Origin: Candidatus Bacteroides merdigallinarum
Lineage (GTDB): Bacteria; Bacteroidota; Bacteroidia; Bacteroidales; Bacteroidaceae
DNA: 41,006 bases
Direction of reading: 5' to 3'
Assembly (NCBI GenBank): GCA_019116285.1
Contig: DXBX01000066.1
Location: forward strand, 1-41,006
A model generated the notes under the pieces. The model was not told the origin of the DNA. It was given only the letters and a program-made list of their open reading frames with translations, and made no database searches. Positions 6,597 to 20,065 of this stretch are shown here, piece after piece (the stretch's first letter is position 1; the number at the start of each line of letters is the position of its first letter). The translations under genes and the position numbers were made by a program.

Positions 6597-9584
6597 TTAT
6601 TGCTGCCGGGTCAAAGGTATGACAACCCCATCACCCATGAGATTTTGCAACAGGCATGAATAACTGAATGCTGCATCATCTGTCACACGCATCCAGCGCA
6701 CTGTCACCGGATCCGTTTCATTCAAATTATATTCACCCCGCAATGCCAATTGATACTGTACTCTATTCAAACCGACTGCACTTCCGTCCATCAAGTCAAA
6801 CGTACCAATACGCGTTCCATCACTGGCACGTTCCAGGATAACGTAAGGAGAAGGTGTCTGGAAAGTTTCTTCCTCAGGCTGTAACTGAATAGTACCCTCC
6901 AGATCCGGATTGACAACATCTATGGACACCGGATTAAACCCGGCTTCATTTCCTGCACTCAGCACAAGTGTCTCGCTACTTGCCAAACGGTTCGTACGGA
7001 AATGGAATGTATGAGTTGTCTCTGAAGTTGTCAAGGCATACGTCCAGACACCTTCTTCACTCTCTGTCCATCCTTCATCCACAGGTGTCAAGTAACGGGT
7101 TTCCAGGTTGACATGGAACATTCGTCCCCGGGCGGCAACCGGGATATTGATTCGCAGATATACATCCTCCCCAACGCCATAAGGCACGTCAAAGCCACCT
7201 GCAATCCCACTGAAGTCATTACCGTCCAACGACATTTGCGGATTGAAATCCATCCGCCCCTTCGTGCTAACGGTAACGCTGGCCGAACGGAACGAATTCT
7301 CCTGTGAGTTCTGTCCTTCAAACCCTTGATTACTCGGATAGCCGGTTGTAGATTGAGCGGAGAGCACTACATAGCTGTCGAAGATCGGACTGACGCTTTC
7401 AAACGTCAACTCATTATCCGCCCCACTAGCTGTATATTCCGCATAGGTATTACCATACATATCCGTTTGAGCCACAGCTCCCGTCCACTCCGGCTTCAGA
7501 ACCGTTTCATCATAATAAACCCGGATTTCACTATCGACAGACCGCGCAGATTGTGTCTCCCTCCAATCCCAAGACGATACATTGGTATCATCATCATTGC
7601 TCAAAGTTCCCAAACGGAAAGGTATCGTTATTGTCTCACCGGTTACCGGATTCAGTTGGGACACTTCGTACGTGGTAAACTTATCATCACTCTCTACACC
7701 GGCCTGACCTAACATGATACGCCGCCTAGTACCCTGTGGCTGGAAAGCAAAATACAAGTCGCGATGCTTGAACAAGTCGTTTCCATTCCGCGGATCGTCT
7801 CCTTCCATATAGATATGAAACTCCTCTGCCACATTAATGTCCGGCAAGGAAGGATTTCCACCGGTTCCTCCCGCATTATCATATTGCGTCAGAATGGTAC
7901 GGAAATTCACACGATGTTCCCCCGTATGGGTAGCGGAATACACATATTTATAATTCCAATCCTTGGTTACGTTCGGAGAAGTAGTTGGATCTACCCACGC
8001 CACACTATTCCAGACCGGTACGGTGTAACTATTCTCCTCCATCACTACTTTAAGGTTTTCACCGCTTTGGGCATCAATCAGGTCGCAACCAAACTTGATG
8101 TCTATGGGGAACAATTCTTGCGGGAAATTATCGGGAATATGGAACAGCACGGTAATCACCTCACCATCCAGTCGCGGAATCTCGGAACTGACCCATACCG
8201 GTGTAAACTCAAAGAGCTTCGAAGTAATGACCTGTACGCGACGGTACAAAGGTCCGTCAGTCTCTTTGATTTGAAGCGTTCCATAACTCACCTTGTCCTG
8301 CGCCGGAGCATGCACACGAATGGTGACACTACCCTCGCCGGTCGTAGAATCCCAAGTGACATCTTCCGGTTTGATTTCAGTATCTGCCACATCATCATTG
8401 CTTATCCACGTGACATTCGGCTGAGTGTCCCCGTCATAATAAAAGCGTATCTCCTGCTCACCTGCCTCTTGGTAAATCACGGTAGTTTCCCCTTCGATAC
8501 GCAACGTCGTAGTGCCGTCCATCACCTCGGGAATTTCGTCGCTGATGGTAATCCATGGATTATTGGCAGGCGTAGCCGTCTTGGCCGCTTCGAAAGAAGT
8601 CACGCCATACGACTCGTTGATAGCTTGTATCGTAATCAGGTATTTGTGGTTACGGATAATCTCATAAGGTTCTTTCACCTCATTCACCAGCATAATTTTG
8701 TAGTACTTGGCTTCCTCGGGGCTTTGTGACGTTTTACGGATTTTCATAATGACATACACCTGGTCGTCCTCAGGATTGGCTGTCTCGAAGAGGTAACGCG
8801 GATCGCCGTCTTCTTCCGAAGCCTTACCCACATCTTCATCATCGCCCAGCTTGATGTTATATTCCTCGGGTACAGTCGTGACAAAGTCATAAGTATTTAA
8901 ATCGAAGTGAAAAGGCTCATCAAGAGCCGATGCATCAAAAGGAGCCACGGTGCCATAAGCATTTTGGTTGCAGACAGCCCAACCGTCTACTACTAAATTT
9001 ACCCCTTGCAGTATTTCATATTGCACCAAGGCTTGGTTGCGGTAAAGCGTAACATTACCTCCCTTTGCAAAATCCTCAGGGATTCCCTGGGGAAATTGTC
9101 CATAGCCCCAATACACCAAGTTTCCGGACGAGGAGACCAATGGGGCAATGACCTCGTTTTCATGCCGCCCGATGTTGTCCTGGTCGTTGAAGTTATCCAT
9201 ATTGACATTCGCCAGGAAATGCAACCTGCGAGTCGAAGCCGGAACCGTAGCCGTAAAGGTTCCCTCACCACCGTCGGTACCACTAACATTACTGGTCTGA
9301 ATATCGGCCAACACACGGCTTATCATATAGCCTTCCCGATTAAATGCCAGCAACCACAAAGTACTGATTTCTTCACCATTGATATCAACGGCGCGGGTTA
9401 ACTTCATAGCGGGGATATTGGTCCTCAACTTCAGATGCACCATACCATTCTCATCCACTGCGGCATGATTGGACGAGGCAATGTCTTCGTCCACACAAGC
9501 CTGTATGGTCAATAGCATCAACAGAACCGCCAACCCTTGGGCGGCTGCCCGCCAGATATGTTTTATGTTCTTATTCATCTTCAT
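6597..9584 (-). CDS. Large fimbrillin-like accessory or tip lipoprotein (DUF4906-like)
   Basis: 995 residues, last gene of the fimbrial operon. The signal peptide ends in TIQAC (Cys30), followed by VDED. After a first strand comes KLTRAVDING, with Arg64-Ala65 in the place where FimA/Mfa1-type subunits are cut by an Arg-specific protease, and then STLWLLAFNREG, the first core strand of the fimbrillin fold. The rest is a chain of beta-sandwich repeats (for example ITVLFHIPDNFPQEL and EDVYLRINIPVAARG), with no catalytic motif. By size and position it is likely a tip or shaft-decorating protein. DUF4906-type proteins at the ends of such operons are the nearest family I recall; this is a guess from organisation. 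Start: ATG 9584, 17 nt after the stop of the gene before it. Confidence 0.7.
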   Translation of the reverse strand: MKMNKNIKHIWRAAAQGLAVLLMLLTIQACVDEDIASSNHAAVDENGMVHLKLRTNIPAMKLTRAVDINGEEISTLWLLAFNREGYMISRVLADIQTSNVSGTDGGEGTFTATVPASTRRLHFLANVNMDNFNDQDNIGRHENEVIAPLVSSSGNLVYWGYGQFPQGIPEDFAKGGNVTLYRNQALVQYEILQGVNLVVDGWAVCNQNAYGTVAPFDASALDEPFHFDLNTYDFVTTVPEEYNIKLGDDEDVGKASEEDGDPRYLFETANPEDDQVYVIMKIRKTSQSPEEAKYYKIMLVNEVKEPYEIIRNHKYLITIQAINESYGVTSFEAAKTATPANNPWITISDEIPEVMDGTTTLRIEGETTVIYQEAGEQEIRFYYDGDTQPNVTWISNDDVADTEIKPEDVTWDSTTGEGSVTIRVHAPAQDKVSYGTLQIKETDGPLYRRVQVITSKLFEFTPVWVSSEIPRLDGEVITVLFHIPDNFPQELFPIDIKFGCDLIDAQSGENLKVVMEENSYTVPVWNSVAWVDPTTSPNVTKDWNYKYVYSATHTGEHRVNFRTILTQYDNAGGTGGNPSLPDINVAEEFHIYMEGDDPRNGNDLFKHRDLYFAFQPQGTRRRIMLGQAGVESDDKFTTYEVSQLNPVTGETITIPFRLGTLSNDDDTNVSSWDWRETQSARSVDSEIRVYYDETVLKPEWTGAVAQTDMYGNTYAEYTASGADNELTFESVSPIFDSYVVLSAQSTTGYPSNQGFEGQNSQENSFRSASVTVSTKGRMDFNPQMSLDGNDFSGIAGGFDVPYGVGEDVYLRINIPVAARGRMFHVNLETRYLTPVDEGWTESEEGVWTYALTTSETTHTFHFRTNRLASSETLVLSAGNEAGFNPVSIDVVNPDLEGTIQLQPEEETFQTPSPYVILERASDGTRIGTFDLMDGSAVGLNRVQYQLALRGEYNLNETDPVTVRWMRVTDDAAFSYSCLLQNLMGDGVVIPLTRQQ

Positions 9585-9601: not shown

Positions 9602-12196
9602 TTATTGGTTGGTGTCCTGAAGGAAGGCGTCGTTGGGTTTGACGTCACGAATGCAACGGATAAAAGTACCCTCGTTATTTCCCTCATCTACGAGCGCGTT
9701 ACCGTTACCGTTATTTGCTCCACTCCAACTCACATAATAATATCGTCCTCCTAATACTTCTTCCATCACTTGTTGCGTATTGGGATCATTTTGATATTTA
9801 ATGATTACTTTTATTTCCGCAGAGGTCGGCAAACGCCAATCATCTAAAACGAATACTTCACCATTTTTTTGATATGTTTCCACATAATATGCACAATGTT
9901 TACGTGCTTCTTCCCATCCACTAATTCCACTGGAATAAACAGCTCCCAATTGTGAAGCAAGCATAAAAGAAGGCGATACCAATTCATCATTTTCAGACGA
10001 ACTGACTGTAGCCAATTGGTAATTCCAATCTGAAACATTTTCCGTCATTGGATGAGCTATATTATATTCATTATTAGTTTGAGTTATCGTGACGAAATAC
10101 ATCATCGGATTACTATTTCCCGAGTTTCCGTCAGGCGTTGCTTCAAATGTCATAGAATAATTTTCATACGTACCTACTCTTCTTCGATAAGTATTTCTCC
10201 CAACAGTATATTGTTCCCAATCAGTCCAGATCCAATTTGGATCATCGTAATCAATCTCACTCTCACTATCATTAAAGCGATACATATAACAGCTATTGTT
10301 ATAGTAAACCTTTGAATAAAAAAAGTAATTATCTACTGGCAATGATATATCATCTATATTTCCAGATGTCAGTTCATAAGTTGAATTTCCCCATCTATTA
10401 TTTCTTCGACGTTGTGTTTCTGTTACACGTAATGTAGTTGGATTTGTGTAATAAGTTTTCCCCCAATACACGGCTCCCTCTGGTGAAACTCCCTCCGGGG
10501 TCAGAAAGTCATCCCGATACGAATAATACCCTTGTATCGGCTGAATATACTCCAACGGATACTGCTCCACTACCACATACTTAGACAGCCCCTGGGTATT
10601 GGTAACCTTTAACGTCATATAGCGTTTGGTCACATTGTTAGGATTGGGAGATTCCAAATGTATATGCCCCTCCGTACCTTCATCTGCCCTTACCGTTATG
10701 GCATGATACAATAGATTTTCTTGCCAATCTAGATATCCATATTGATTCTCAACCTGTATAAGTCGATCATAGTCATTCACCTCTTGACGCTCTCCATCTT
10801 TATTGATGAAAAACTTGGCAGGGATATAATCTTCATTATTTTGTTGCTCACCGGGATACGTGAAGTCAATGGAATCTTTCACCGCCTCATAAGCTGCCTG
10901 AGACCTAAATCCTACAAACTCCACACTCTGAATCGGCGATGAAGAATAGAATTCCAACCCGTCGTAACCGTCTGTATTACGCAGGTCAATGTGATATTCG
11001 TTCAATATCAGGTACTTTAAGCCTTCATCTTCACCCACACTCACTGCTTCTGTTTTCCAGTCCGCAATTTGGAACTTTACATCCGTCAGTTCCACCGGGT
11101 CATCTATCTTGGTAGAACCCAACATATCGGCCGTGGCAGTAATTTCGTAGCACGTGTTGCGCTGCAACACTTGTTCCATCATGTTGGGAATGATAGGAAT
11201 CTTATAGAAATTGTGCGACAATGTTTCTTCGCCCATTCGTCCCGGCATATCAATCAGAAGCATGGTTTCGTTCTCTACCAAGTCGTCCCAGCGATTCACA
11301 TAGGCATAAAACAAGACTGTGCTGCCCGCCCATGACTCATTTGCTCCTTTCTGATAGACAAAATGTTCGCTGAAAGCCTCCTCTATTCCTTCCGCAGCTA
11401 CCTCCGGAGTCGTTTGGAATCCACGCTGTTCTGGAATCAGCGGATTACCTTCTGCCACAGCGGGTGTAGCCGTAGCATAATTGGAGACCTGCACTTTCAG
11501 TATGCTGGGGTCGAACTGTGCATCCCATTCCGAAGTCAGGTTAATGGTCATCTTCACCTTGACGGCAGCCCGGTACATCTTTACCGGCAATTCGTAAATC
11601 TTACCATCTTCCGCTTCTACGGCCAACTGCTCATATGTGACATCCGTGTGACCATCCATCAGGAATGTTTTGCCTTCAAACTTCTGATTACCTGACCCTT
11701 CCGGCAGTGTCATGCCCTCCCAATAGACAATTTTCTCATCCTTGGCAACTACCGCTTTCAGGTCATCCAATGTTTTCACCTCGCTCAAATCAGCATCCCC
11801 CTCATAGTTGGCCAATACATAAACGGAATAGGTTTCTCCCGGTTCAAAGTGCTCCAGCCAGTCTGTACCGCTGTACACCATCACCACCCCGTCTGCCGGA
11901 TTTTCACTATGCACATATCCATCCTCTGTTCCCTCAGCGTTCTTCTTCAACGAGCCGTCCGCGGTAAAGATAAAAATATCCACCGTCTCTATCACATCTT
12001 CGCGCAACGTAGCCTCACTCTCCGCACGAGTGACGGCCAAGGTCTCCCCGCCGACTTGCAGGTTCAGGTGCAATCCCGGTCCCAATGGTTCGGATTGCTC
12101 CACAGGAAAATCATCCTTGATACACGAAGCCAGCATGACCAGCAATATGACACTTGCCGCCCGGCCCGCCTGTCTTAAAATTTGTTGTATGTTCAT
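9602..12196 (-). CDS. Fimbrillin-like accessory or tip protein with WRLPT (DUF1566-like) C-terminal domain
   Basis: Started at ATG 12196 (864 residues) because AAGGAGA lies 7 nt upstream; an in-frame GTG at 12250 would overlap the previous gene. The lipobox LASC gives Cys25, then IKDD. AVTRAESE holds Arg57-Ala58, a putative maturation site, followed by VETVDIFIFTADG, the first fimbrillin-type core strand. The C-terminal 110 residues (GWEEARKHCAYY, then DWRLPTSAEIKVI at about 795, then FIRCIRD at the end) look like the DUF1566/Fibrobacter-type domain with a C-type-lectin-like layout, which suggests a binding head. The segment at about 9840-10500 is clearly more AT-rich than its surroundings, which suggests exchange of the tip region. 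Ligand unknown. Confidence 0.7.
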   Translation of the reverse strand: MNIQQILRQAGRAASVILLVMLASCIKDDFPVEQSEPLGPGLHLNLQVGGETLAVTRAESEATLREDVIETVDIFIFTADGSLKKNAEGTEDGYVHSENPADGVVMVYSGTDWLEHFEPGETYSVYVLANYEGDADLSEVKTLDDLKAVVAKDEKIVYWEGMTLPEGSGNQKFEGKTFLMDGHTDVTYEQLAVEAEDGKIYELPVKMYRAAVKVKMTINLTSEWDAQFDPSILKVQVSNYATATPAVAEGNPLIPEQRGFQTTPEVAAEGIEEAFSEHFVYQKGANESWAGSTVLFYAYVNRWDDLVENETMLLIDMPGRMGEETLSHNFYKIPIIPNMMEQVLQRNTCYEITATADMLGSTKIDDPVELTDVKFQIADWKTEAVSVGEDEGLKYLILNEYHIDLRNTDGYDGLEFYSSSPIQSVEFVGFRSQAAYEAVKDSIDFTYPGEQQNNEDYIPAKFFINKDGERQEVNDYDRLIQVENQYGYLDWQENLLYHAITVRADEGTEGHIHLESPNPNNVTKRYMTLKVTNTQGLSKYVVVEQYPLEYIQPIQGYYSYRDDFLTPEGVSPEGAVYWGKTYYTNPTTLRVTETQRRRNNRWGNSTYELTSGNIDDISLPVDNYFFYSKVYYNNSCYMYRFNDSESEIDYDDPNWIWTDWEQYTVGRNTYRRRVGTYENYSMTFEATPDGNSGNSNPMMYFVTITQTNNEYNIAHPMTENVSDWNYQLATVSSSENDELVSPSFMLASQLGAVYSSGISGWEEARKHCAYYVETYQKNGEVFVLDDWRLPTSAEIKVIIKYQNDPNTQQVMEEVLGGRYYYVSWSGANNGNGNALVDEGNNEGTFIRCIRDVKPNDAFLQDTNQ

Positions 12197-12216
12197 GACT
12201 GTTTCTCCTTTCGTTG

Positions 12217-13695
12217 TTAAGGCTGTTCTTCTCCGCTTCCGCTCCCCCACAGGGCATCACCATCTTGGGTAGACACCTGCCGGATACGAATAGAAGTGCC
12301 GTCACCGTATGGTTGTGTATCGCTTGCATAAAACGTCTGCTTATTATTCGGAGCCGTACCGATAGTAACGTATAGTTCCGTCTCAAGGGGCTGTGTCAGG
12401 GTTCCGTCATACGGCTTAGTCGGGCGGACACGCAAGGTAACCGGTTCTGTCGTTCCACCCACTCCTTCATCCTCGCCCACGAACTCGAAATTCAGAGCAT
12501 CGGTCAAGTGTGCCTGCCAGCGCACGCCTCCAGGAGTTTCCATCCGCAAAGCGACTGTAAACTGCCGATCTGCACCGCCTGCACCTTCCACGTATTGGGT
12601 AGCATATATTTGTTCTCCATCCGCTACAGGCTTCACATTGGTCGCTTCCAACTGGAATTGCCCATTATCTGACAATTCATAATCATGCTTCACATCCGCC
12701 CAAGGTTGTACTTGGCAAGCGATGGCCAAACCGCCCGACTCCTTGATAAGGCATTTCACATTGTACTTGCAATTCGTCTGGGATATGGGAGGCAAATAAA
12801 TACGTACATCTTTCCGCTGCTCACCATTAATAGTATAAGTAATGAGCAGATAAGAAGCATCATTCACTTCAGTACTGACCCACTGGTTGTCCCACTGACT
12901 GCCACCCTCGGCATGCAACGTAACGGGTTTGCTGAAACACTGATCCTCCGTCCCGTAATCTCCGGTAAACTGTTCGTCTTCCGGCACAACCTGCGTTACT
13001 TCCCAAGGAGACGAAGTAATCAATTCCGCAGGAGTGGTCACATTGTCTCTTCCTGTGGTACTACTGCCTTCCCTGTCCGCAAAAAGCCCATAACGGGTAT
13101 ATTTATATAACTTCACGCTCTCCACGGTAGCCTCACAACTCGCCGACGACTTTGCAAAATAAACATTCAGCAACGAGAACGGGCGCACCAATGTAATCGG
13201 AACTACATCTACGTTATCACCTTGGGCACTAATGTTCTGAGAAACTGTTCCCGTCATCAGGTCGCCTGGATTACGGTCAATGTTTTCCGTCAGAAAGCCT
13301 GCAATCTTCAATTTATCCAGGCTGGTATTCTCAGTCAAATAATAACCATCGTTAGAGACACTGGCTCCTCCTTCATTCGCCACTACGTAGAACGTCAGCT
13401 CCCCACCTTCACTCAACCGGAAAGGGATGTAATAAGCCTGTCCGGTCGTCGTGAGATCCATATCTTCGTGGTAGCCCACACGCTCACCTGCTGTGTTGAA
13501 CACATATACCCGCAATTGCTTGAGGACACTAACATCGTCAAGCCCGGCCCGCGTGGAAGTGGCTTGCGGATCTATCAGCAAGCGCACATTATACCCCTCG
13601 TCCGTAGAAACGGAAGAAAAATCATCCGATGCGCAGGAAACGCATACAAGTCCCATAAAAGCCCATAACCATCCCATTACCTTATTCATAGCCAT
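12217..13695 (-). CDS. Fimbrillin-like accessory subunit lipoprotein
   Basis: 492 residues. An AGGAGG just upstream serves either ATG 13695 or ATG 13689; the start overlaps the end of the FimB/Mfa2-type gene by 14 nt, so the two are translationally coupled. The lipobox VSC gives Cys21, followed by ASDD. ATSTRAGLDD puts Arg49-Ala50 at the expected protease maturation site, then LKQLRVYVFNTAGERVG is the typical first core strand of the FimA/Mfa family. A second domain starts near residue 335 (QLEATNVKPV) and ends with VSTQDGDALWG. It is probably a minor shaft or tip-assembly subunit similar in role to FimC/Mfa3-type proteins; the exact match is not clear. Confidence 0.7.
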   Translation of the reverse strand: MAMNKVMGWLWAFMGLVCVSCASDDFSSVSTDEGYNVRLLIDPQATSTRAGLDDVSVLKQLRVYVFNTAGERVGYHEDMDLTTTGQAYYIPFRLSEGGELTFYVVANEGGASVSNDGYYLTENTSLDKLKIAGFLTENIDRNPGDLMTGTVSQNISAQGDNVDVVPITLVRPFSLLNVYFAKSSASCEATVESVKLYKYTRYGLFADREGSSTTGRDNVTTPAELITSSPWEVTQVVPEDEQFTGDYGTEDQCFSKPVTLHAEGGSQWDNQWVSTEVNDASYLLITYTINGEQRKDVRIYLPPISQTNCKYNVKCLIKESGGLAIACQVQPWADVKHDYELSDNGQFQLEATNVKPVADGEQIYATQYVEGAGGADRQFTVALRMETPGGVRWQAHLTDALNFEFVGEDEGVGGTTEPVTLRVRPTKPYDGTLTQPLETELYVTIGTAPNNKQTFYASDTQPYGDGTSIRIRQVSTQDGDALWGSGSGEEQP

Positions 13696-14641
13696 TTACC
13701 TCCTCTCTTCGTATCGTTCGTTCATCCAGTCCGGGCTGTACATCTTCATCCTCAAAAGGCACCACCGTGACACTGATTCCGTCTGTATTGAGACGTAGCA
13801 GAATGTCCACGGCCACTTCTTGGTGATCTTCTACCGACAGATTATTGTCGGCCAAGAATTGGCTGATGGACAGTGTGTAGAAAGTCTCATCAGTTTCCGG
13901 ATTTGTCAGATGCAAGGTAGCTGCACAATCATCGGTGAAACGCAGAGTGTGCGAAGCACTCACGTAGGCCGTCTCATCATCCGCGGCTACAGCCAGCGCA
14001 GGACGATAGGTTGTTTCCTCATCCAAAACCGTCATACCGAAATCATAATGTCCGGGCATATTCTCCAAACGTAAGCCCACGGGACAATCTCCCTCAGCGC
14101 GTGTGCCGGCAGGTACCACCACCTCCTGTCCGAACCCTTCCAAACGGACAGTCAAGTCAATGTGTGCACAATTGAAAAGACAAAGTTCCTGTTGGTCAAC
14201 ATAGGCATTGGTGATAGTGAATGTCTTGACCGCGTGATACAGTTCGTCGTTGGTATCCACATCCTGCCCGGCATGCCATTCCGGTGCCGCCATAAGGGCC
14301 TGATCCCGATGTTCTTCAACGACCGTACCACTGCTCTCATAGGCATTTCCCCAACATACAGCCTCGTAGGTGCCCGGCTCCAAGTCGTCCAGGCGGATGC
14401 CCTGCAAGGTCTGCAAGTCGGCCTGGTCCAATTCATACGACCGGATGAGTGCCCGGTTATCTGTGTTGTAAACATACAGATTGACCTTGGCCACCTTTTC
14501 GGGGAAAATATCTGTCGTGCCGTCGCCGTTGTATCGGAACAGCAAGGTGAAGCTGCGGCGGCAGTCACTTTGGTCTTCCATGATGCAGCCGGTGAACAGG
14601 CAAGCTATCATTACTAAGAAGAATATTGCATGTTTTTTCAT
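13682..14641 (-). CDS. FimB/Mfa2-type fimbrial anchor lipoprotein
   Basis: Started at ATG 14641 (MKKHAIFF...); an ATG at 14662 with AAGGGA upstream is a fair alternative. The signal peptide ends LFTGC and is followed by IMEDQSDC. The segment CRRSFTLLFRYNGDG, then KVAKVNLYVYNTDNRAL, matches the FimB/Mfa2 family, which caps the base of the fimbria and anchors it to the outer membrane. Unlike the other four fimbrillin-fold lipoproteins of the operon, it has no TRA or TKA cut site after the first strand; this fits an uncleaved anchor. A second beta-sandwich runs from about residue 150 (CLFNCAHIDLTVRLEGFG). It follows the fimbrillin gene after a strong hairpin and overlaps the next gene. Confidence 0.8.
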   Translation of the reverse strand: MKKHAIFFLVMIACLFTGCIMEDQSDCRRSFTLLFRYNGDGTTDIFPEKVAKVNLYVYNTDNRALIRSYELDQADLQTLQGIRLDDLEPGTYEAVCWGNAYESSGTVVEEHRDQALMAAPEWHAGQDVDTNDELYHAVKTFTITNAYVDQQELCLFNCAHIDLTVRLEGFGQEVVVPAGTRAEGDCPVGLRLENMPGHYDFGMTVLDEETTYRPALAVAADDETAYVSASHTLRFTDDCAATLHLTNPETDETFYTLSISQFLADNNLSVEDHQEVAVDILLRLNTDGISVTVVPFEDEDVQPGLDERTIRREEVNGYE

Positions 14642-14700
14642 CTCTGTATGTTTCTGGTTCATTAAATGTCCCTTTGCAAGGGGACTTGGTTAGTAAATCC

Positions 14701-14751: not shown

Positions 14752-16167
14752 TTATTCGCCCAGGCCCGGATAGATGGTCTTCTCGGTGAGCGGGAGTACC
14801 GTTACCTCAACTACCACGTTGTAGGACTGCGGGTTGTCCAAGTCAATGGTCATGTTGACCGGAGAAATGATTACGTCCATGTTGTAGATCTTACCGGCTT
14901 GCATCTGCAATTCTGTGGAGCCTTGTGCATCGCTATACAGTTTCGTGATGTTGGCAAAGAGATAACCGCCATCAGCAACTACCGGCAATTTGTAGTTAAG
15001 GTTTACGGAAGCCGTTGCAATAAACTCATTATCCGCAGCAGTCAGCTGACCACCACCTGTCAAAGAAGGAGTTGTAGTATAGCCCTCCACATCCTCGTCA
15101 AACTGGAAGTGGATGGTAGGATTGTTGGTGGAAGCCCACTTATCCAATCCTGTATTTTCGGGATCAGTTACATTAGCTTCTAAATCAAATGGTACAAATA
15201 CATTGAAAGCAATGCACTTTCCGCTGCCAATGTTCAGAGGTGTCTTGCCTTGGTCTTCCGTACCATAAGTCAGCAATTCGCCATAGGCAGAATTAGCGTA
15301 GCTTACGTATGCAGCATCGTCAGTCATATTGGCACTGCCCAGCATCCAAGTACCATTGGCGATGTTTTTCATATAAGTAGTGTTCTTGGACAAGGCATTT
15401 ACCGTACCTGCAAAGTCCGTGAACTCCGTAGCAATGTTGTTCAAATAGATGCCGTTCAATTTGGGCTTGAAGCTACTCCAAGTCAATGTGTACTTGTCAG
15501 CATCATCTGCAGGGCCGAAAGTCTTGGTACCAGATGTCTCTATCTTAATTGAATTGATTTGAATACGCGAGATAATCGGCTTCAACTGGATCTCAGCCGT
15601 ATAGTAGAAGTTGCCTTCATCACCTGCACTAGGTAATTTAACTTCCACATCGGCATCGGAAGGTTCCGGACTAAACGGAGTGATGGTCTTATCGCTACCA
15701 ACGTGAACGATGCCGCTCTTTGCAATATTCAAACCTTGTGCAATATACTGCGTCTTCAGTGTGCTGATGTCACCACCCACAGCCAGCGTTACGTCTTGGT
15801 TGGCAATAGCATGCACAGCCGTAACGTCTTTCAAGCCGATAAACTTGACACCTTCGGTAGTAAACAGGGCGTTCCATTCAGTGGTCTTACCCGACTTGTC
15901 ACCCGTGTACGAATACTTGACGATACCATTTGCATCCGTGAAAAACAAAGTCAGCTTGTTGATGTTGGTCACGGCAGCCGTTGCATCTTTATCAGGAGAC
16001 CATTTGTCACCAGGAGCCGTTGCCTTCGTGTCCGCACCGATTCCAGCAATAGACACCACCATCGTCTTATTGTTAGCGTCTCCACCAACAATAGCGTCCT
16101 CTTCATTACTACATGCTGCGAATGCCAATCCGGCGATTCCCAGCATCAAAAACTTGTTCATTTTCAT
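14752..16167 (-). CDS. Major fimbrillin (FimA/Mfa1-type structural subunit)
   Basis: 471 residues, start ATG 16167. The signal peptide MKMNKFLMLGIAGLAFAAC gives a lipidated Cys19, followed by SNEED. After strand MVVSIAGIG comes ADTKATAPG, with Lys48-Ala49 where related subunits have Arg-Ala, then INKLTLFFTDANGIVKYS, the typical core strand. The C-terminal beta-sandwich ends in NMTIDLDNPQSYNVVVEVTVLPL, a pattern widely seen in Bacteroidales fimbrillins. In the family, subunits reach the outer membrane as lipoproteins, are cut before the core domain and polymerise by strand exchange. This position (after DUF3868, before the anchor) and hairpins on both sides of the gene fit the major shaft subunit. 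Confidence 0.85.
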   Translation of the reverse strand: MKMNKFLMLGIAGLAFAACSNEEDAIVGGDANNKTMVVSIAGIGADTKATAPGDKWSPDKDATAAVTNINKLTLFFTDANGIVKYSYTGDKSGKTTEWNALFTTEGVKFIGLKDVTAVHAIANQDVTLAVGGDISTLKTQYIAQGLNIAKSGIVHVGSDKTITPFSPEPSDADVEVKLPSAGDEGNFYYTAEIQLKPIISRIQINSIKIETSGTKTFGPADDADKYTLTWSSFKPKLNGIYLNNIATEFTDFAGTVNALSKNTTYMKNIANGTWMLGSANMTDDAAYVSYANSAYGELLTYGTEDQGKTPLNIGSGKCIAFNVFVPFDLEANVTDPENTGLDKWASTNNPTIHFQFDEDVEGYTTTPSLTGGGQLTAADNEFIATASVNLNYKLPVVADGGYLFANITKLYSDAQGSTELQMQAGKIYNMDVIISPVNMTIDLDNPQSYNVVVEVTVLPLTEKTIYPGLGE

Positions 16168-16422: not shown

Positions 16423-17883
16423 TTATTCGCCCAGGAGCTGCCGTGCTTCCTCCAACTTGCGCACATTCTCGGCGGCACCGGGATAGCCCTGCTCCGCAGC
16501 CTTTTGGAAGGCTTCGGCGGCCTCGTCCATGCGTCCGGCCTTGAACTGTGCCACGCCTATCAGGTTCTGCAAGGAGGCATCTCCGGCGGCCTTCGGCGTC
16601 AGCAGGCTGACCGCGGCGTCATACTCGCCCGCGTCTATCAGGGCCAGGGCATAGTTGGTCAGGGCCACGGTGTTGTCGGGATAGGTGTCCACGGCCACCT
16701 TCAGCGCGGCGCGGTAGTCCGGCGTGCCACGGCCGTAGCTGTCGGCCACCTTCTGTATCTCGGCCACGCTGAGCAGGTCGGGACGCGACTCCAGCAGCTT
16801 CTTGGCCTCGGCCAGGTCGAAGTGGCGGACATTATACTCGATGCGGTATTCGTTGCGGCGCAGGGGGCCGTACATCTCGTTGAGGACGCGCTGGTAGATC
16901 TCCGGCGGCACGAGGGCCTTGATGCGCTCCTCGCACTGGTCTTGGTCGCCCTCGCATTGGTCGATGATGCGCAACACCTCGTCCTGCTTCAGCAGGTTGG
17001 TGTATTGCTCCACCACGCGGCGCAGGCCTTCCCAGTCCTCGCCCCGTCCCTCGACGTGCCAGAGGCTGCGGTCCAAGTCGGGGTATCCCTCGGCGATATA
17101 GTCCGCCAGTGCCTTGGCGCGGCGTTCGGACAGTGCCCGGTTGTAGGCCACGGTGGCTTCGGGCGAGGCATAGCCGGTGATATAGATGCCGGTGATGGTG
17201 AGGTCTGTATTCTCGCGCACCACGTCGATGGAGGCGCACACCTTGTCCAGCTCGCTTTGGTTGTTCTTATACTTGGGCAGGATGCGGTGGCTGTCCTGGC
17301 GGTATTGCAGACGGGCGGTACGCACTTCAGCCCTGCGCTTCACCACCTCTTCCTTGGGCTGCTGCACGACGGCCATCTCATAGACAGGCTCCTCGTAGGG
17401 CAGGATGCCGCCGGTGGTGATCGTCTCGCGGCCTTCGCCACACTCGGCACAGCCGGTGACGTCGGCACGCAGCTCCAGCCGCCCGTTCAGCATCCAGGGC
17501 TCGTAGGGAGCGGTGGCCTCATAGTGCAGGATTTGGGATTCGCCGTTGTGGCGGCGCAGGCGGACCTGGTCTTGCGGGAGGTCCTTGTCCAGCGCGGCGC
17601 GGCGGCGCACCACCTTGCTGCGGATGCGGCCGTCCACATAGACGGGCTGCAGAGCCTGCTCCCGGGTGCCGTCGTCGGACACAATCACGGGCACCAGCTG
17701 CAGGGTGTGCTGGAGCTTCATGTCCAGGTTGTCCAGGCTGAGGTCCATGCGTACACGCACCTCTTCGCCGTCTTTCTCCACGCGGCGGTTGTCCACCTTC
17801 ACAGCCTCCAGATAGGCCGTCTGCGCAAAGGCCATCGGGGTCATCAGTAACCACAGAGCTATCGATACAACTATCTTCTTCAT
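16423..17883 (-). CDS. DUF3868 / OmpA-like / TPR protein of the fimbrial operon
   Basis: Started at ATG 17883 because AAGGAGGA lies 8 nt upstream; this gives 486 residues. A Sec signal peptide ends at AFAQ. Residues of about 20-150 form a DUF3868-type N-terminal domain (LEAVKVDNRRVEKDGEEVRVRMDL). An OmpA-like peptidoglycan-binding segment follows at about 210-330 (TITGIYITGYASPEATVAYN, then LSERRAKALADYI). The last 100 residues are TPR-like (YALALIDAGEYDAAVSLL, then FKAGRMDEAAEAFQKA). It probably sits in the periplasm and links the assembly machinery or the fimbrial base to the cell wall. The stop of the DUF3575 gene is 13 nt upstream of its start, so the pair is co-translated. Confidence 0.75.
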   Translation of the reverse strand: MKKIVVSIALWLLMTPMAFAQTAYLEAVKVDNRRVEKDGEEVRVRMDLSLDNLDMKLQHTLQLVPVIVSDDGTREQALQPVYVDGRIRSKVVRRRAALDKDLPQDQVRLRRHNGESQILHYEATAPYEPWMLNGRLELRADVTGCAECGEGRETITTGGILPYEEPVYEMAVVQQPKEEVVKRRAEVRTARLQYRQDSHRILPKYKNNQSELDKVCASIDVVRENTDLTITGIYITGYASPEATVAYNRALSERRAKALADYIAEGYPDLDRSLWHVEGRGEDWEGLRRVVEQYTNLLKQDEVLRIIDQCEGDQDQCEERIKALVPPEIYQRVLNEMYGPLRRNEYRIEYNVRHFDLAEAKKLLESRPDLLSVAEIQKVADSYGRGTPDYRAALKVAVDTYPDNTVALTNYALALIDAGEYDAAVSLLTPKAAGDASLQNLIGVAQFKAGRMDEAAEAFQKAAEQGYPGAAENVRKLEEARQLLGE

Positions 17884-17896
17884 AACCGGTTCCTCC

Positions 17897-18472
17897 TTAT
17901 TTAATGACATAGATGAGGGAGATGGCGGCTTTCGTCACCCCGAAGTAATTCTTCTCGCCGCTGCCCTGCCACTCGCCGCAGTGGGGACACTCGTAGCGGT
18001 CGTACCAGGCGCGCACGTAGCCCAGGCCGATGGCGGCCTCCAGGCTCCACCGCTTGCCCAGCAGCCACTGGTAGCCGTACACCAGGCCGCCGCCCACGTA
18101 CCAGCCTTCGTAGCGGTGCTCCTTCAGCCCCTCGTAGATGCCGAAAGGCAGGTCCAGGCCGCCCACATTGTACTGGCCGCCCAGCAGGTGCGCTCCCAGG
18201 AAGTGGCCGTTGAACGCCTCGCAGAACCAATAGCGGGCTTCGGGCTGGGCCATCCAGTGTTTCCACTTCTTGTTGTCGCTCCAGTCCCAGCCGTTGTAGT
18301 TGCCGGACAGGTCGAGCGTCCACTTCGGCGCCAGGCCGACTTCCGCACCCAGGTTGATGGTCGCCGTGGCGTCATACAACAGATTGGTCTTCACAGCCAC
18401 CTTCTGTGCCTGCAAAGACATCGTGCCGACGAACAGCATGAGAAAGAAAAGGATTCGCTTCATGTCTTTCAT
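17897..18472 (-). CDS. DUF3575 outer-membrane protein, first gene of the fimbrial operon
   Basis: 191 residues from ATG 18472 (ATG 18463 is an alternative three codons in). The signal peptide ends at SLQAQ, followed by KVAVKTNLLYDATATINLGAEVGL, the hallmark of DUF3575 proteins found next to FimA/Mfa1 clusters. Alternating hydrophobic strands rich in Trp, Tyr and Gly point to a small outer-membrane beta-barrel. An unusual ECPHCGEW segment near the C-terminus has a CxxC pair that could bind metal or form a disulfide. The gene is the first one downstream of the invertible segment, with about 46 nt between its start and the inner repeat. Its role in assembly is inferred from context only. Confidence 0.75.
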   Translation of the reverse strand: MKDMKRILFFLMLFVGTMSLQAQKVAVKTNLLYDATATINLGAEVGLAPKWTLDLSGNYNGWDWSDNKKWKHWMAQPEARYWFCEAFNGHFLGAHLLGGQYNVGGLDLPFGIYEGLKEHRYEGWYVGGGLVYGYQWLLGKRWSLEAAIGLGYVRAWYDRYECPHCGEWQGSGEKNYFGVTKAAISLIYVIK

Positions 18473-18518: not shown

Positions 18519-18541
18519 CCGTTACTTAGCAGGTAACGGCA
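18519..18541 (+). repeat. Inner inverted repeat of the invertible segment (recombination site)
   Basis: 23-bp site made of CCGTTAC, a 7-nt spacer TTAGCAG, and GTAACGG, then CA. Its exact reverse complement is at 18831-18853. The two 7-bp arms in inverted order around a 7-bp asymmetric spacer are the usual form of a tyrosine-recombinase crossover site. Confidence 0.9.
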
Positions 18542-18634
18542 AAGGGCTTCCCAGCCTTGTCGGAAGGGGGAAAACAGCCATCCGGAAGTTTTCGGACACG
18601 GATAAGGCGGCTGATACGGACAGGATTTGTCTCC

Positions 18635-18649
18635 GTGTTAATTTAACAC
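18635..18649. promoter_or_regulatory. Palindrome inside the invertible segment, possible operator
   Basis: GTGTTAA-T-TTAACAC is a perfect 7+1+7 palindrome, nested with a wider CCGTGTT/AACACGG pair. It could bind a dimeric regulator or form a stem in either orientation of the segment. Function unknown. Confidence 0.4.
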
Positions 18650-18784
18650 AACACGGACAGGGGACGTCTTGCCCTTCGGGATCGGCAAACGTCCGGGTGC
18701 GGCCTGACACAAGCGCCTCTACGCGGCTTCTTAGGCCGTTGTCTGAATATTTATCTAAGTTTTATCGAAAAAAAACGCTCTTTC

Positions 18785-18817
18785 TTGTCGATCGGATAAA
18801 TTTAATGCCTATCTTTG
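18785..18817 (+). promoter_or_regulatory. Invertible promoter, currently pointing toward the recombinase 3' end
   Basis: TATCTTTG at 18810-18817 is an exact Bacteroidetes -7 box followed by GC. A TTG at 18785-18787 lies 22 nt upstream, slightly more than the usual 19-21. The predicted start site (about 18824) is just inside the outer repeat, so a transcript would cross that repeat and run antisense into the recombinase gene. Confidence 0.65.
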
Positions 18818-18830
18818 CAGTCTGGACTTC

Positions 18831-18853
18831 TGCCGTTACCTGCTAAGTAACGG
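18831..18853 (-). repeat. Outer inverted repeat of the invertible segment (recombination site)
   Basis: Exact reverse complement of 18519-18541 over 23 bp; identity stops on both sides of the 23 bp. It ends 19 bp before the recombinase stop codon. Confidence 0.9.
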
Positions 18854-18872: not shown

Positions 18873-19784
18873 TTACTCAACAAAAACCACTGTCAGCAAT
18901 TCCCGGTTCATCCCGTCTATTTGTTCGTCCGTATGATGCCTGAAGTAGGTTTCGGTTACTTTCACCGAAGAATGCCCCATGGCATCGCGAATCAATTCAT
19001 GTTGGAAATTTTTGCTATTGGCCAAGGTCGCCCAGCTATGCCGCGCCGAATAGCTGCTCAAGCCTTCCGGCAGCCCGCAGCGCACTGCCAGGATATGCAG
19101 GAGACGGTTGAAGCGTCGTAATGATTTCTGATATTCACGATAACCCTCCGGCCCTTCCCGGCGGACAAAGGGGAAGAGGTAGGGCGCATCCGGATCTGCC
19201 GAACGGCAACGGGCCAGCAGGGTAGCCGCCCACGGCTCGAGGCGCACCCGGAGGCAGGTACCGGTCTTGCGGCGACGATAGGTCAGCACATCCTCTTGCA
19301 AGTCGCAGGGACGCAGGTAGGCCATATCGACAAAGGGGATACCCCGCAGGGCAAAAAGCAGCAGGAAGAGCCGGCGGGCCTCCTCCAGGCGGGGGTCGGA
19401 CTGCGGAATCCGGCTCAACCTATGCAGGGAAGGCTCGCCCAACGCACGCTTCCGCCCGGGACGGCTGCCCGTATAGACCCCGTGGAACAGGCGGGGCCGG
19501 CTGACGGCCAGTCCCGCGTCGACGCCCCGCTGATAGACGGCACGAAGCATGCGCAGGTAGGTGGACACCGTGTTCCACCGCAGCCGGCAACCCAGCAGAT
19601 AGGCCTGGTAGCCCAGCAACCAGCCGGACGTGAGGTCGGAAAAACGAAAAGACTGCTTGCCACAGTAGCCGCACAGGCGGCGCAGGGCCGAACGATAGAC
19701 ATGGGCCGTGCCGTAACGGCCATCCTGCTCCAGCTTCTCCACCAGGGCAGTCATAAAGACAATGAAATCTGTGTTCTTGTGCAT
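18873..19784 (-). CDS. Tyrosine recombinase, predicted invertase of the adjacent fimbrial switch
   Basis: Started at ATG 19784 (303 residues), because upstream in-frame codons lie in the palindromic repeat at 19817-19990. An N-terminal SAM-like DNA-binding domain covers about 1-100 (HVYRSALRRLCGYCG, then WNTVSTYLRMLRAVY). The catalytic domain has Arg in LFALRGIPFVDM, Lys in RRRKTG, YSARHSWAT (Tyr in place of the first His of HxxR, as I recall from other Bacteroides members), His in AMGHSSVKVTETY, and the nucleophile Tyr280. All catalytic positions are therefore filled. It is the same size and type as the local Tsr-like recombinases that flip capsule and surface-protein promoters in Bacteroides. 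Adjacency to the perfect inverted repeats makes it the best candidate for their inversion. Confidence 0.85.
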   Translation of the reverse strand: MHKNTDFIVFMTALVEKLEQDGRYGTAHVYRSALRRLCGYCGKQSFRFSDLTSGWLLGYQAYLLGCRLRWNTVSTYLRMLRAVYQRGVDAGLAVSRPRLFHGVYTGSRPGRKRALGEPSLHRLSRIPQSDPRLEEARRLFLLLFALRGIPFVDMAYLRPCDLQEDVLTYRRRKTGTCLRVRLEPWAATLLARCRSADPDAPYLFPFVRREGPEGYREYQKSLRRFNRLLHILAVRCGLPEGLSSYSARHSWATLANSKNFQHELIRDAMGHSSVKVTETYFRHHTDEQIDGMNRELLTVVFVE

Positions 19785-19816: not shown

Positions 19817-19990
19817 TGGAACGCAAATTCCGCAAATTACACAAATAATCTTTTAGACGCGGATTTTGCGGATAATGCGGATTTTTATGTCTTTTGTCAT
19901 ACAGAACCGTTATCCAAGAAAAAATTATCCGCTCAATCCGCCCAATCCGCGTCTAAAAAATTTGCGGGATTTGCGGAATTTGCGTTCCAT
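19817..19990. repeat. Long palindromic intergenic repeat with GCGGAT and GCAAATTCCGC units
   Basis: The left side (GGAACGCAAATTCCGCAAAT, then TTTTAGACGCGGAT) reappears reverse-complemented on the right (ATCCGCGTCTAAAA, then ATTTGCGGAATTTGCGTTCC) around an AT-rich centre. Arms are about 75 nt with a few mismatches. It is a dispersed-type palindrome between the recombinase and pdxB. The rest of the 19785-20215 gap holds the pdxB promoter and a possible minus-strand TACATTTG box at 20058-20065 for the recombinase, whose leader would then include this palindrome. Confidence 0.7.
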
Positions 19991-20057: not shown

Positions 20058-20065
20058 CAAATGTA
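20058..20065 (-). promoter_or_regulatory. Possible -7 box for the recombinase gene
   Basis: Minus strand reads TACATTTG. It is the only TAnnTTTG match found upstream of the recombinase, some 275 nt before its ATG, and has no clear -33 partner. Confidence 0.3.

What the first reader, a model, noticed from the sequence alone, without database searches (positions are those of the whole stretch)
18519..18853. Invertible promoter switch controlling a fimbrial operon, with its own tyrosine recombinase
A perfect 23-bp inverted repeat flanks 289 bp that contain a Bacteroides -7 box and no gene. Each repeat is built as a recombinase site (7-bp arms, 7-bp asymmetric spacer). The segment sits between a seven-gene fimbrial operon and a tyrosine recombinase gene that has all catalytic residues and ends 19 bp from the outer repeat. 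Invertible promoters next to such recombinases are known in Bacteroides for capsules and other surface structures; this specific switch for this operon is inferred from sequence. It predicts ON and OFF cells for the whole fimbria.
Basis: partly seen in the sequence, partly recalled or inferred. Interest (0 to 1): 0.93.

Follow-up and report, generated by a model that had tools for sequence, protein, structure and literature searches.

The report
Invertible promoter switch for gut fimbriae
Between a recombinase gene and a seven-gene fimbria (surface hair) operon of a gut Bacteroides-type bacterium lies a 335-base DNA segment with perfect inverted repeats at its ends; it is predicted to be flipped by that recombinase and so to turn the fimbria on or off, and here its promoter-like sequence points away from the operon, the likely OFF state, as in most relatives examined.

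Summary
The box points away from the operon, so the assembled state is OFF. Comparison carries the case. Of 86 related recombinase genes in one genus, 77 have a GTTAC-N7-GTAAC pair just downstream, and the 7-bp spacer matches between the two arms in 77 of 77 although 22 spacers occur. Of 89 distinct segments 83 are scored OFF and 6 ON; one ON segment aligns to 25 relatives, only on the opposite strand. In one relative's assembly (G088) the recombinase contig and the fimbrial contig both stop at the last base of a repeat arm and the segment is missing, the fork expected if both orientations were in the sample. The nearest recombinases form a fimbria-linked clade. The kind is known: Bacteroides tyrosine-recombinase promoter switches, such as that of the BT1927 S-layer gene. 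One correction: the first histidine of the HxxR motif is Tyr245, as in all 86 relatives. Inversion of this locus itself is not shown.

The parts
18519..18541 (+). Operon-side repeat arm, CCGTTAC-TTAGCAG-GTAACGG plus CA: two 7-bp recombinase half-sites around a 7-bp asymmetric spacer
18831..18853 (-). Recombinase-side repeat arm, perfect reverse complement of the other arm
18542..18830 (.). Invertible segment interior, 289 bp, with no gene recognised
18810..18817 (+). Bacteroides -7 box TATCTTTG, pointing to the recombinase and away from the fimbrial operon (OFF orientation)
18785..18787 (+). -33-like TTG, 22 bp upstream of the -7 box; orthologues L080, L083, L084 carry TTTCTTG 20 bp from their box (counted by eye on the print)
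18632..18657 (.). Palindrome/hairpin CCGTGTTA..AACACGG inside the segment, kept in part in L079, L080, L083, L084 (by eye); role unknown, perhaps a regulator site or an insulator
18873..19784 (-). Tyrosine recombinase, 303 aa, Phage_int_SAM_5 + Phage_integrase; R147 K173 Y245 R248 H271 Y280; same strand as the operon
17897..18472 (-). Operon gene 1, DUF3575 protein; ATG 46 bp from the repeat arm
16423..17910 (-). Operon gene 2, DUF3868 + OmpA domain protein
14752..16167 (-). Operon gene 3, 471 aa lipoprotein (AFAAC lipobox by eye), no Pfam match; candidate stalk pilin (inference)
13682..14662 (-). Operon gene 4, Mfa2 anchor pilin
12217..13695 (-). Operon gene 5, FimA/Mfa2-domain pilin lipoprotein
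9602..12250 (-). Operon gene 6, fimbrial tip adhesin FimD (NF052322, 428 bits against a cut-off of 170); listed frame starts at GTG 12250, the family scans used 9602-12205
6597..9584 (-). Operon gene 7, 995 aa lipoprotein, no Pfam or NCBIfam match; a homologue follows FimD in G088:C39
20058..20065 (-). Candidate -7 box TACATTTG of the recombinase gene

Best explanation
The 335-bp segment between the recombinase gene and the seven-gene type V fimbrial operon is likely a promoter switch: it carries one Bacteroides -7 box that points away from the operon in this assembly, and the adjacent tyrosine recombinase would invert it by binding the 7-bp arms and exchanging strands across the matching 7-bp spacers. 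After inversion the box would lie just inside the operon-side arm, about 80 bp from the first ATG, and would drive the DUF3575-DUF3868-pilin-Mfa2-FimA-FimD-gene 7 operon (ON). In the present orientation no promoter-like element points to the operon from that end of the segment or from the 46-bp leader (OFF), and the same box points into the 3' end of the recombinase gene, whose stop codon is 19 bp past the arm. Shown: arms, promoter-like box and its direction, gene order, uniqueness of the site in the held assembly, the same arrangement in related genomes with both directions represented, and an assembly fork in one relative. Inferred: that this copy inverts, that this recombinase does it, and that the box is the operon's main promoter.
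For: Perfect 23-bp repeat against at most 16 in 200 shuffles. Of 86 related recombinases 77 have a GTTAC-N7-GTAAC pair within 1.5 kb downstream, and 5 of the other 9 have a pair that encloses the recombinase gene; spacer equal between arms in 77 of 77, though two loci share a spacer only 16% of the time. A -7/-33 matrix trained on these segment ends gives 72 OFF, 4 ON, 1 unclear of 77, and 83 OFF, 6 ON of 89 distinct segments. Of segment pairs that align, 669 do so on the same strand and 26 on opposite strands; 25 of the 26 involve L116, which is scored ON and has no same-strand match. G088: two contigs end exactly at the arms' inner ends, no interior was found, and the closely similar G095 locus joins the same flanks through a segment scored ON; the G088 operon side matches all seven genes. 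Target type clusters on the recombinase tree: 5 changes against 25.5 shuffled, 0 of 500 as low; the window lies in a 9-row, all-fimbrial clade. [quoted passage not shown] thetaiotaomicron (passage of PMC12548429); one surveyed relative (in L126) sits on a BT1927-family gene.
Against: No read or second strain of this species was available, so inversion of this copy is unseen. The -33 spacing here is 22 bp and the matrix did not choose the TTG. A plain TAnnTTTG match left 39 of 77 segments unclear and called 27 OFF, 11 ON. 4 of 86 recombinases have no pair in the stretches scanned (L086, L097, L151, L154; L086 is the contig that ends at an arm), 15 of 77 pairs differ at an arm base, and one pattern-found pair in G030 has unequal spacers. 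The six ON calls include two weaker ones, L177 and L292, and only fragments of a recombinase matched beside L292. Segments of close relatives are not independent counts. The G088 fork is in a metagenome assembly and could come from two strains each fixed in one orientation.
Confidence: 0.9

Rival explanations
1. A switch that worked in ancestors but is now frozen in the OFF orientation in this species.
For: Only one orientation is assembled here; decayed cousins exist: L081 has an in-frame TAG in the recombinase and imperfect arms.
Against: The recombinase frame is open and carries all the residues invariant among the 86, and the arms are identical over 23 bp; the spacer TTAGCAG was seen at no other of the 77 loci, yet both arms share it.
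Confidence: 0.07
2. The segment inverts, but a recombinase elsewhere in the genome does it.
For: The assembly holds 18 Phage_int_SAM_5 matches; in B. fragilis one tyrosine recombinase inverts a local and a distant promoter (passages of PMC4747536), and a P. vulgatus promoter inverts although its neighbouring recombinase is broken (passage of PMC13114119).
Against: The next match of this recombinase in the genome by E-value is 33% identical, the site occurs only here, and target type follows the lineage of the adjacent recombinase.
Confidence: 0.08
3. No inversion: the repeat arms are transcription terminators or an old integration scar, and the box is an ordinary promoter of an antisense RNA.
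For: Each arm can fold as an RNA hairpin.
Against: Spacers are equal between arms in 77 of 77 loci, the arm is not followed by a T run here (at most 3 T of 8 on the antisense side, 4 of 8 on the operon side), and both orientations occur in relatives.
Confidence: 0.03

Closest known systems
BT1927-type S-layer promoter switches of Bacteroides thetaiotaomicron
   Same: Repeats of the same GTTAC-N7-GTAAC kind (consensus CCGTTACCTABVRAGTAAC in a passage of PMC12118408), a neighbouring site-specific integrase, promoter ON/OFF by inversion with locking by repeat mutation (passage of PMC12548429); a relative in this survey, in L126, sits directly on a BT1927-family gene.
   Different: Target is a type V fimbrial operon; the window's spacer departs from that consensus at two positions (compared by eye); the recombinase is 45% identical to the one at L126.
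Tyrosine recombinase (Tsr) loci of Bacteroides fragilis (Weinacht et al. 2004; seen only through a passage and the reference list of the review PMC12632263)
   Same: A phase-variable locus with an adherent/aggregative phenotype that encodes a product matching a fimbrial protein's N-terminal sequence, in a paper on tyrosine recombinases.
   Different: The review says that fimbriae could not be shown for it; the Tsr sequences and sites were not fetched, so homology to this pair is untested.
E. coli type 1 fimbriae switch (fimS with FimB/FimE)
   Same: An invertible promoter element of about 300 bp (314 bp in a passage of PMC8777976) just before a fimbrial operon; recombinase genes upstream (recalled).
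   Different: 9-bp repeats TTGGGGCCA there, 23-bp repeats here; a different fimbria; one adjacent recombinase gene here, two recombinases there. A functional parallel, not kin.
Fimbrillin genes near inverton groups in a defined gut community (PMC11892184)
   Same: Fimbrillin family genes enriched near inverton groups 137, 112 and 122, invertase genes near invertons (passages).
   Different: Group-level statistics; no locus like this one was in the passages seen.

Membership tests
Bacteroides tyrosine-recombinase invertible promoter (GTTAC-N7-GTAAC type) | Two inverted copies of GTTAC-N7-GTAAC with equal spacer | tested here: met
Bacteroides tyrosine-recombinase invertible promoter (GTTAC-N7-GTAAC type) | Bacteroides promoter elements inside the segment near one end | tested here: met
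   -7 box TATCTTTG, matrix score 14.9 against -5.6 at the other end (the matrix was trained on these segments); -33 weak
Bacteroides tyrosine-recombinase invertible promoter (GTTAC-N7-GTAAC type) | Adjacent tyrosine recombinase of the same family | tested here: met
Bacteroides tyrosine-recombinase invertible promoter (GTTAC-N7-GTAAC type) | Both orientations found in the family | tested here: met
   relatives only:
Bacteroides tyrosine-recombinase invertible promoter (GTTAC-N7-GTAAC type) | Both orientations found at this locus | not testable with these tools
   one assembly, no reads
Bacteroides tyrosine-recombinase invertible promoter (GTTAC-N7-GTAAC type) | Inversion depends on the adjacent recombinase | not testable with these tools
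   needs a deletion mutant
Catalytic tyrosine recombinase | Canonical R-K-H-R-H-Y set (recalled) | tested here: not met
   Tyr245 in place of the first His, in 86 of 86 family members; the other five positions carry the expected residue in the window
Type V (FimA/Mfa) fimbrial operon | Mfa2 anchor, FimA-type pilin and FimD tip adhesin genes | tested here: met
Type V (FimA/Mfa) fimbrial operon | Pilins made as lipoproteins | tested here: met
   lipobox cysteines in genes 3-7 read by eye from the printed N-termini
Type V (FimA/Mfa) fimbrial operon | Assembled fimbriae on cells | not testable with these tools
   needs microscopy
E. coli fim switch | TTGGGGCCA repeats | tested here: not met
   repeat sequence read; TTGGGGCCA
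Bacteroides fragilis Tsr loci | Homology of recombinase and sites to Tsr | not tested
   Tsr sequences not fetched

The most novel reading that the evidence does not exclude
The switch is a self-latching device: in OFF the very promoter that would drive the fimbria fires an antisense RNA into the 3' end of its own recombinase gene, holding recombinase low and OFF stable; in ON the antisense vanishes, recombinase rises and the cell soon flips back. The same layout (recombinase stop a median of 10 bp from the site, promoter aimed at it in OFF) recurs through a whole genus and would explain why 83 of 89 sequenced switches are OFF.
Probability: 0.25. Interest if true: 0.65.

Novelty: new member of a known kind. 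Interest (0 to 1): 0.42.

Why it matters
It says that a complete type V fimbria of a gut Bacteroides relative is likely a population gamble, present on some cells only, and it places the switch in a nine-member recombinase clade (the window included) in which every member stands before a fimbrial operon. The equal-spacer rule, the OFF excess in public genomes and the promoter aimed at the recombinase's 3' end are simple, testable regularities for a genus.

Tried and rejected
Rejected: chance repeat (shuffles); terminator (no T run after the arm here); dispersed copy of the site (only here within 3 mismatches). An Rfam scan of the window gave nothing. Private spacers per genome, to stop cross-talk between switches: not supported, since loci in one genome share a spacer in 23 of 104 pairs against 442 of 2822 between genomes. 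Universal antisense: weakened, since in 25 of 77 loci a T-rich stretch follows the arm on the antisense side and could stop that RNA (3 T of 8 in the window). Contig breaks at arms in B. fluxus (G108) were set aside because a closely similar segment at a second locus (about 95% by eye) could cause them; G079:C36 also starts at an arm end but no partner contig was found. The four IMG/VR copies L255-L258 have one and the same segment, so they add no orientation contrast. The first genome-contig scan with one protein found no relative; the second with an alignment did. One search's comparison of segments returned no pairs, most likely because of an unsupported scoring option, and was redone. Plain TAnnTTTG matching called 27 OFF, 11 ON and 39 unclear of 77; 10 of its 11 ON calls scored 6.5 or less and rest on poor matches, so a trained matrix replaced it. 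L081 was unclear and OFF. Papers were seen as passages found by term, not in full: PMC12118408, PMC4747536, PMC11892184, PMC10939037 (no passage found), PMC12632263, PMC12548429, PMC8777976, PMC10994844, PMC13114119. The orientational control of fimE, which prompted the latch idea, is recalled; the passages seen do not describe it.

Full report
What is there. The window is one whole contig (C50) of a 2.73-Mb, 93-contig assembly, 80.6% complete. At 18519-18541 and 18831-18853 lie two perfect 23-bp inverted repeats around 289 bp. It is the longest perfect inverted repeat with a 50-1000 bp gap in the window; 200 Markov-1 shuffles reached 16 bp at most. Each arm reads CCGTTAC-TTAGCAG-GTAACGG plus CA, two 7-bp half-sites around a 7-bp asymmetric spacer. 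Within 3 mismatches the 21-bp site occurs only here in the held assembly. The interior has no recognised gene and one TAnnTTTG box, TATCTTTG at 18810-18817 on the + strand. On the - strand lie the recombinase (18873-19784, stop 19 bp from the arm) and, beyond the segment, seven genes in the same direction: DUF3575, DUF3868/OmpA, a 471-aa lipoprotein, Mfa2 anchor, FimA-type pilin, FimD tip adhesin, and a 995-aa lipoprotein. Genes 3 to 7 start with lipobox signal peptides (by eye), as expected of type V pilins. The box points away from the operon: the assembled state is OFF.

The recombinase. Pfam finds Phage_int_SAM_5 and Phage_integrase. In an alignment of 86 relatives K173, R248, H271 and Y280 are invariant and R147 is Arg in 84; the first residue of the HxxR motif is Tyr245 in all 86.

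Survey. A protein search of 99 genomes of the genus found relatives (E <= 1e-20) in 82. I took 80 stretches: mostly from the top of that list, plus loci found by the site pattern; many other listed matches were not fetched. With the window they hold 86 recombinase matches of 600 bases or more. 77 of 86 have a pair of GTTAC-N7-GTAAC sites within 1.5 kb downstream. Of the other 9, five (L136, L138, L155, L156, L157) have a pair with equal spacers that encloses the recombinase gene itself, three (L086, L097, L154) show one site and L151 has a different repeat. The pairing allowed up to two mismatches, spacer included, yet the spacer was equal in 77 of 77, with 22 different spacers in all; random pairs of loci share a spacer in 16%. 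Whole 17-mers are identical in 62 of 77, the rest differing at arm bases. Recombinases that are nearly the same can carry different spacers, both arms changed together (L091 and L092). That is what strand exchange across a matching overlap demands. One exception appeared in a pattern search: a pair in G030 with spacers TTCGTAG and TTCATAG. That search found the longer pattern GTTACTTNNNAGGTAACGG in 67 of 158 genus genomes; for the reversed control pattern I saw a match in one genome (G096).

Orientation. A -7/-33 matrix trained on the segment ends called 72 OFF, 4 ON and 1 unclear of 77. After adding named-genome, viral-collection and further loci and dropping 12 duplicates (listed), 89 distinct segments gave 83 OFF and 6 ON; of the 45 before DUF3575/DUF3868 genes 40 are OFF and 5 ON. 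The ON ones are L082 (Bacteroides ndongoniae), L085 (MAG E17 bin5), L087 (Mediterranea massiliensis), L116 (genome G119), L177 (Bacteroides ilei) and L292 (G138, with only recombinase fragments); names come from records with the identical segment. L116 aligns with 25 other segments, always on the opposite strand; 669 other pairs align on the same strand and none on both. One further opposite pair is L082 (ON) with L175 (OFF), over 38 bp. For the window's own segment no inverted homologue was found.

An assembly fork. In genome G088 the recombinase contig C4 ends with the last base of its repeat arm, and contig C39, which holds the orthologous operon, ends with the last base of the other arm. 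Genome G095, with 99% and 97% identical flanks, joins the two through a segment scored ON; in G088 no part of that interior was found. With both orientations in the sequenced sample an assembler would stop at exactly these bases. Strain mixture could do the same, but that too means both orientations exist. The G088 operon side matches all seven window genes at 49-81% identity, gene 7 only in the part fetched.

Lineage. On a tree of 77 recombinases (quick method) the target type (DUF3575/DUF3868 downstream or not) needs 5 changes against 25.5 in shuffles, 0 of 500 as low; the window's recombinase lies in a 9-row clade, all fimbrial, and a 23-row clade with 22 fimbrial and one unassigned row. 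Two other DUF3575/DUF3868 loci in this genome (C18, C20) show neither an exact GTTAC-N7-GTAAC site nor a recombinase of this family in the stretches fetched, so the switch belongs to this operon.

How it would work. The recombinase binds the arms, exchanges strands across the spacer and inverts the segment. ON: the box lies just inside the operon-side arm and a transcript runs through the arm into DUF3575. OFF: no operon-directed element at that end and no TAnnTTTG in the 46-bp leader. Read-through from the recombinase gene, which runs the same way, could leak. In OFF the box aims at the 3' end of the recombinase gene; across 77 loci the stop codon is a median of 10 bp from the site and 68 lie within 60 bp. 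This permits antisense control of the recombinase, which could hold OFF stable; it is untested, and 25 of 77 loci have T-rich sequence after the arm that could end such an RNA. The OFF excess has other possible causes: selection, culture conditions, exclusivity among surface coats. Print agrees in part: BT1927 is expressed in about 1 in 1,000 cultured cells (passage of PMC12548429), but a P. vulgatus polysaccharide promoter was almost always ON in broth (passage of PMC13114119).

What is known. GTTAC-GTAAC repeats beside integrases are described for capsule, S-layer and OmpA-family loci (passages of PMC12118408); fimbrillin genes are enriched near invertons (passages of PMC11892184); a review names a phase-variable fimbria-like locus of B. 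fragilis, for which fimbriae could not be shown, and cites the 2004 Tsr paper, which I did not see. A relative in this survey sits on a BT1927-family gene (in L126, NF053619). So this is a new member of a known kind. The literature searches listed no paper that I recognised as about this operon's switch; most subscription papers are not held.

Noticed in passing
window 19817-19989: A long imperfect inverted repeat (outer arms 30 nt at 90%, inner arms 47 nt at 79%) lies between a candidate recombinase promoter (20058-20065) and its ATG, so the mRNA leader could form a hairpin of roughly 60 pairs; possibly a repeat element.
   Followed up: no
window 18632-18694: Two hairpins inside the invertible segment; the first (CCGTGTTA..AACACGG) is kept in part in four orthologous segments, with paired changes by eye.
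   Followed up: partly
L136, L138, L155, L156, L157: In five relatives the inverted site pair encloses the recombinase gene itself (one site 150-250 bp before it, one 30-370 bp after it, equal spacers), so the gene would invert with the segment. In G066 the site pair likewise brackets a recombinase match.
   Followed up: partly
L126, L099, L101, L106 and similar loci: A large sister clade of recombinases, mostly with a 264-270 bp interior, stands before large surface-type proteins (mostly about 850-1280 aa); the one checked in L126 is a BT1927-family S-layer protein, one in L091 has a collagen-like stretch.
   Followed up: partly
L103, L108, L111, L114, L117, L120, L121, L125, L128, L130: A second fimbria-like operon type with the same switch; in L103 two Mfa2-type proteins, DUF3575, an OmpA/PD40 protein and a Calx-beta protein of 818 aa.
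   Followed up: partly
L080 and L288 (Bacteroides fluxus, G108:C22 and C88): Two fimbrial loci in one genome carry closely similar invertible segments (about 95% by eye), as if exchanged between loci.
   Followed up: no
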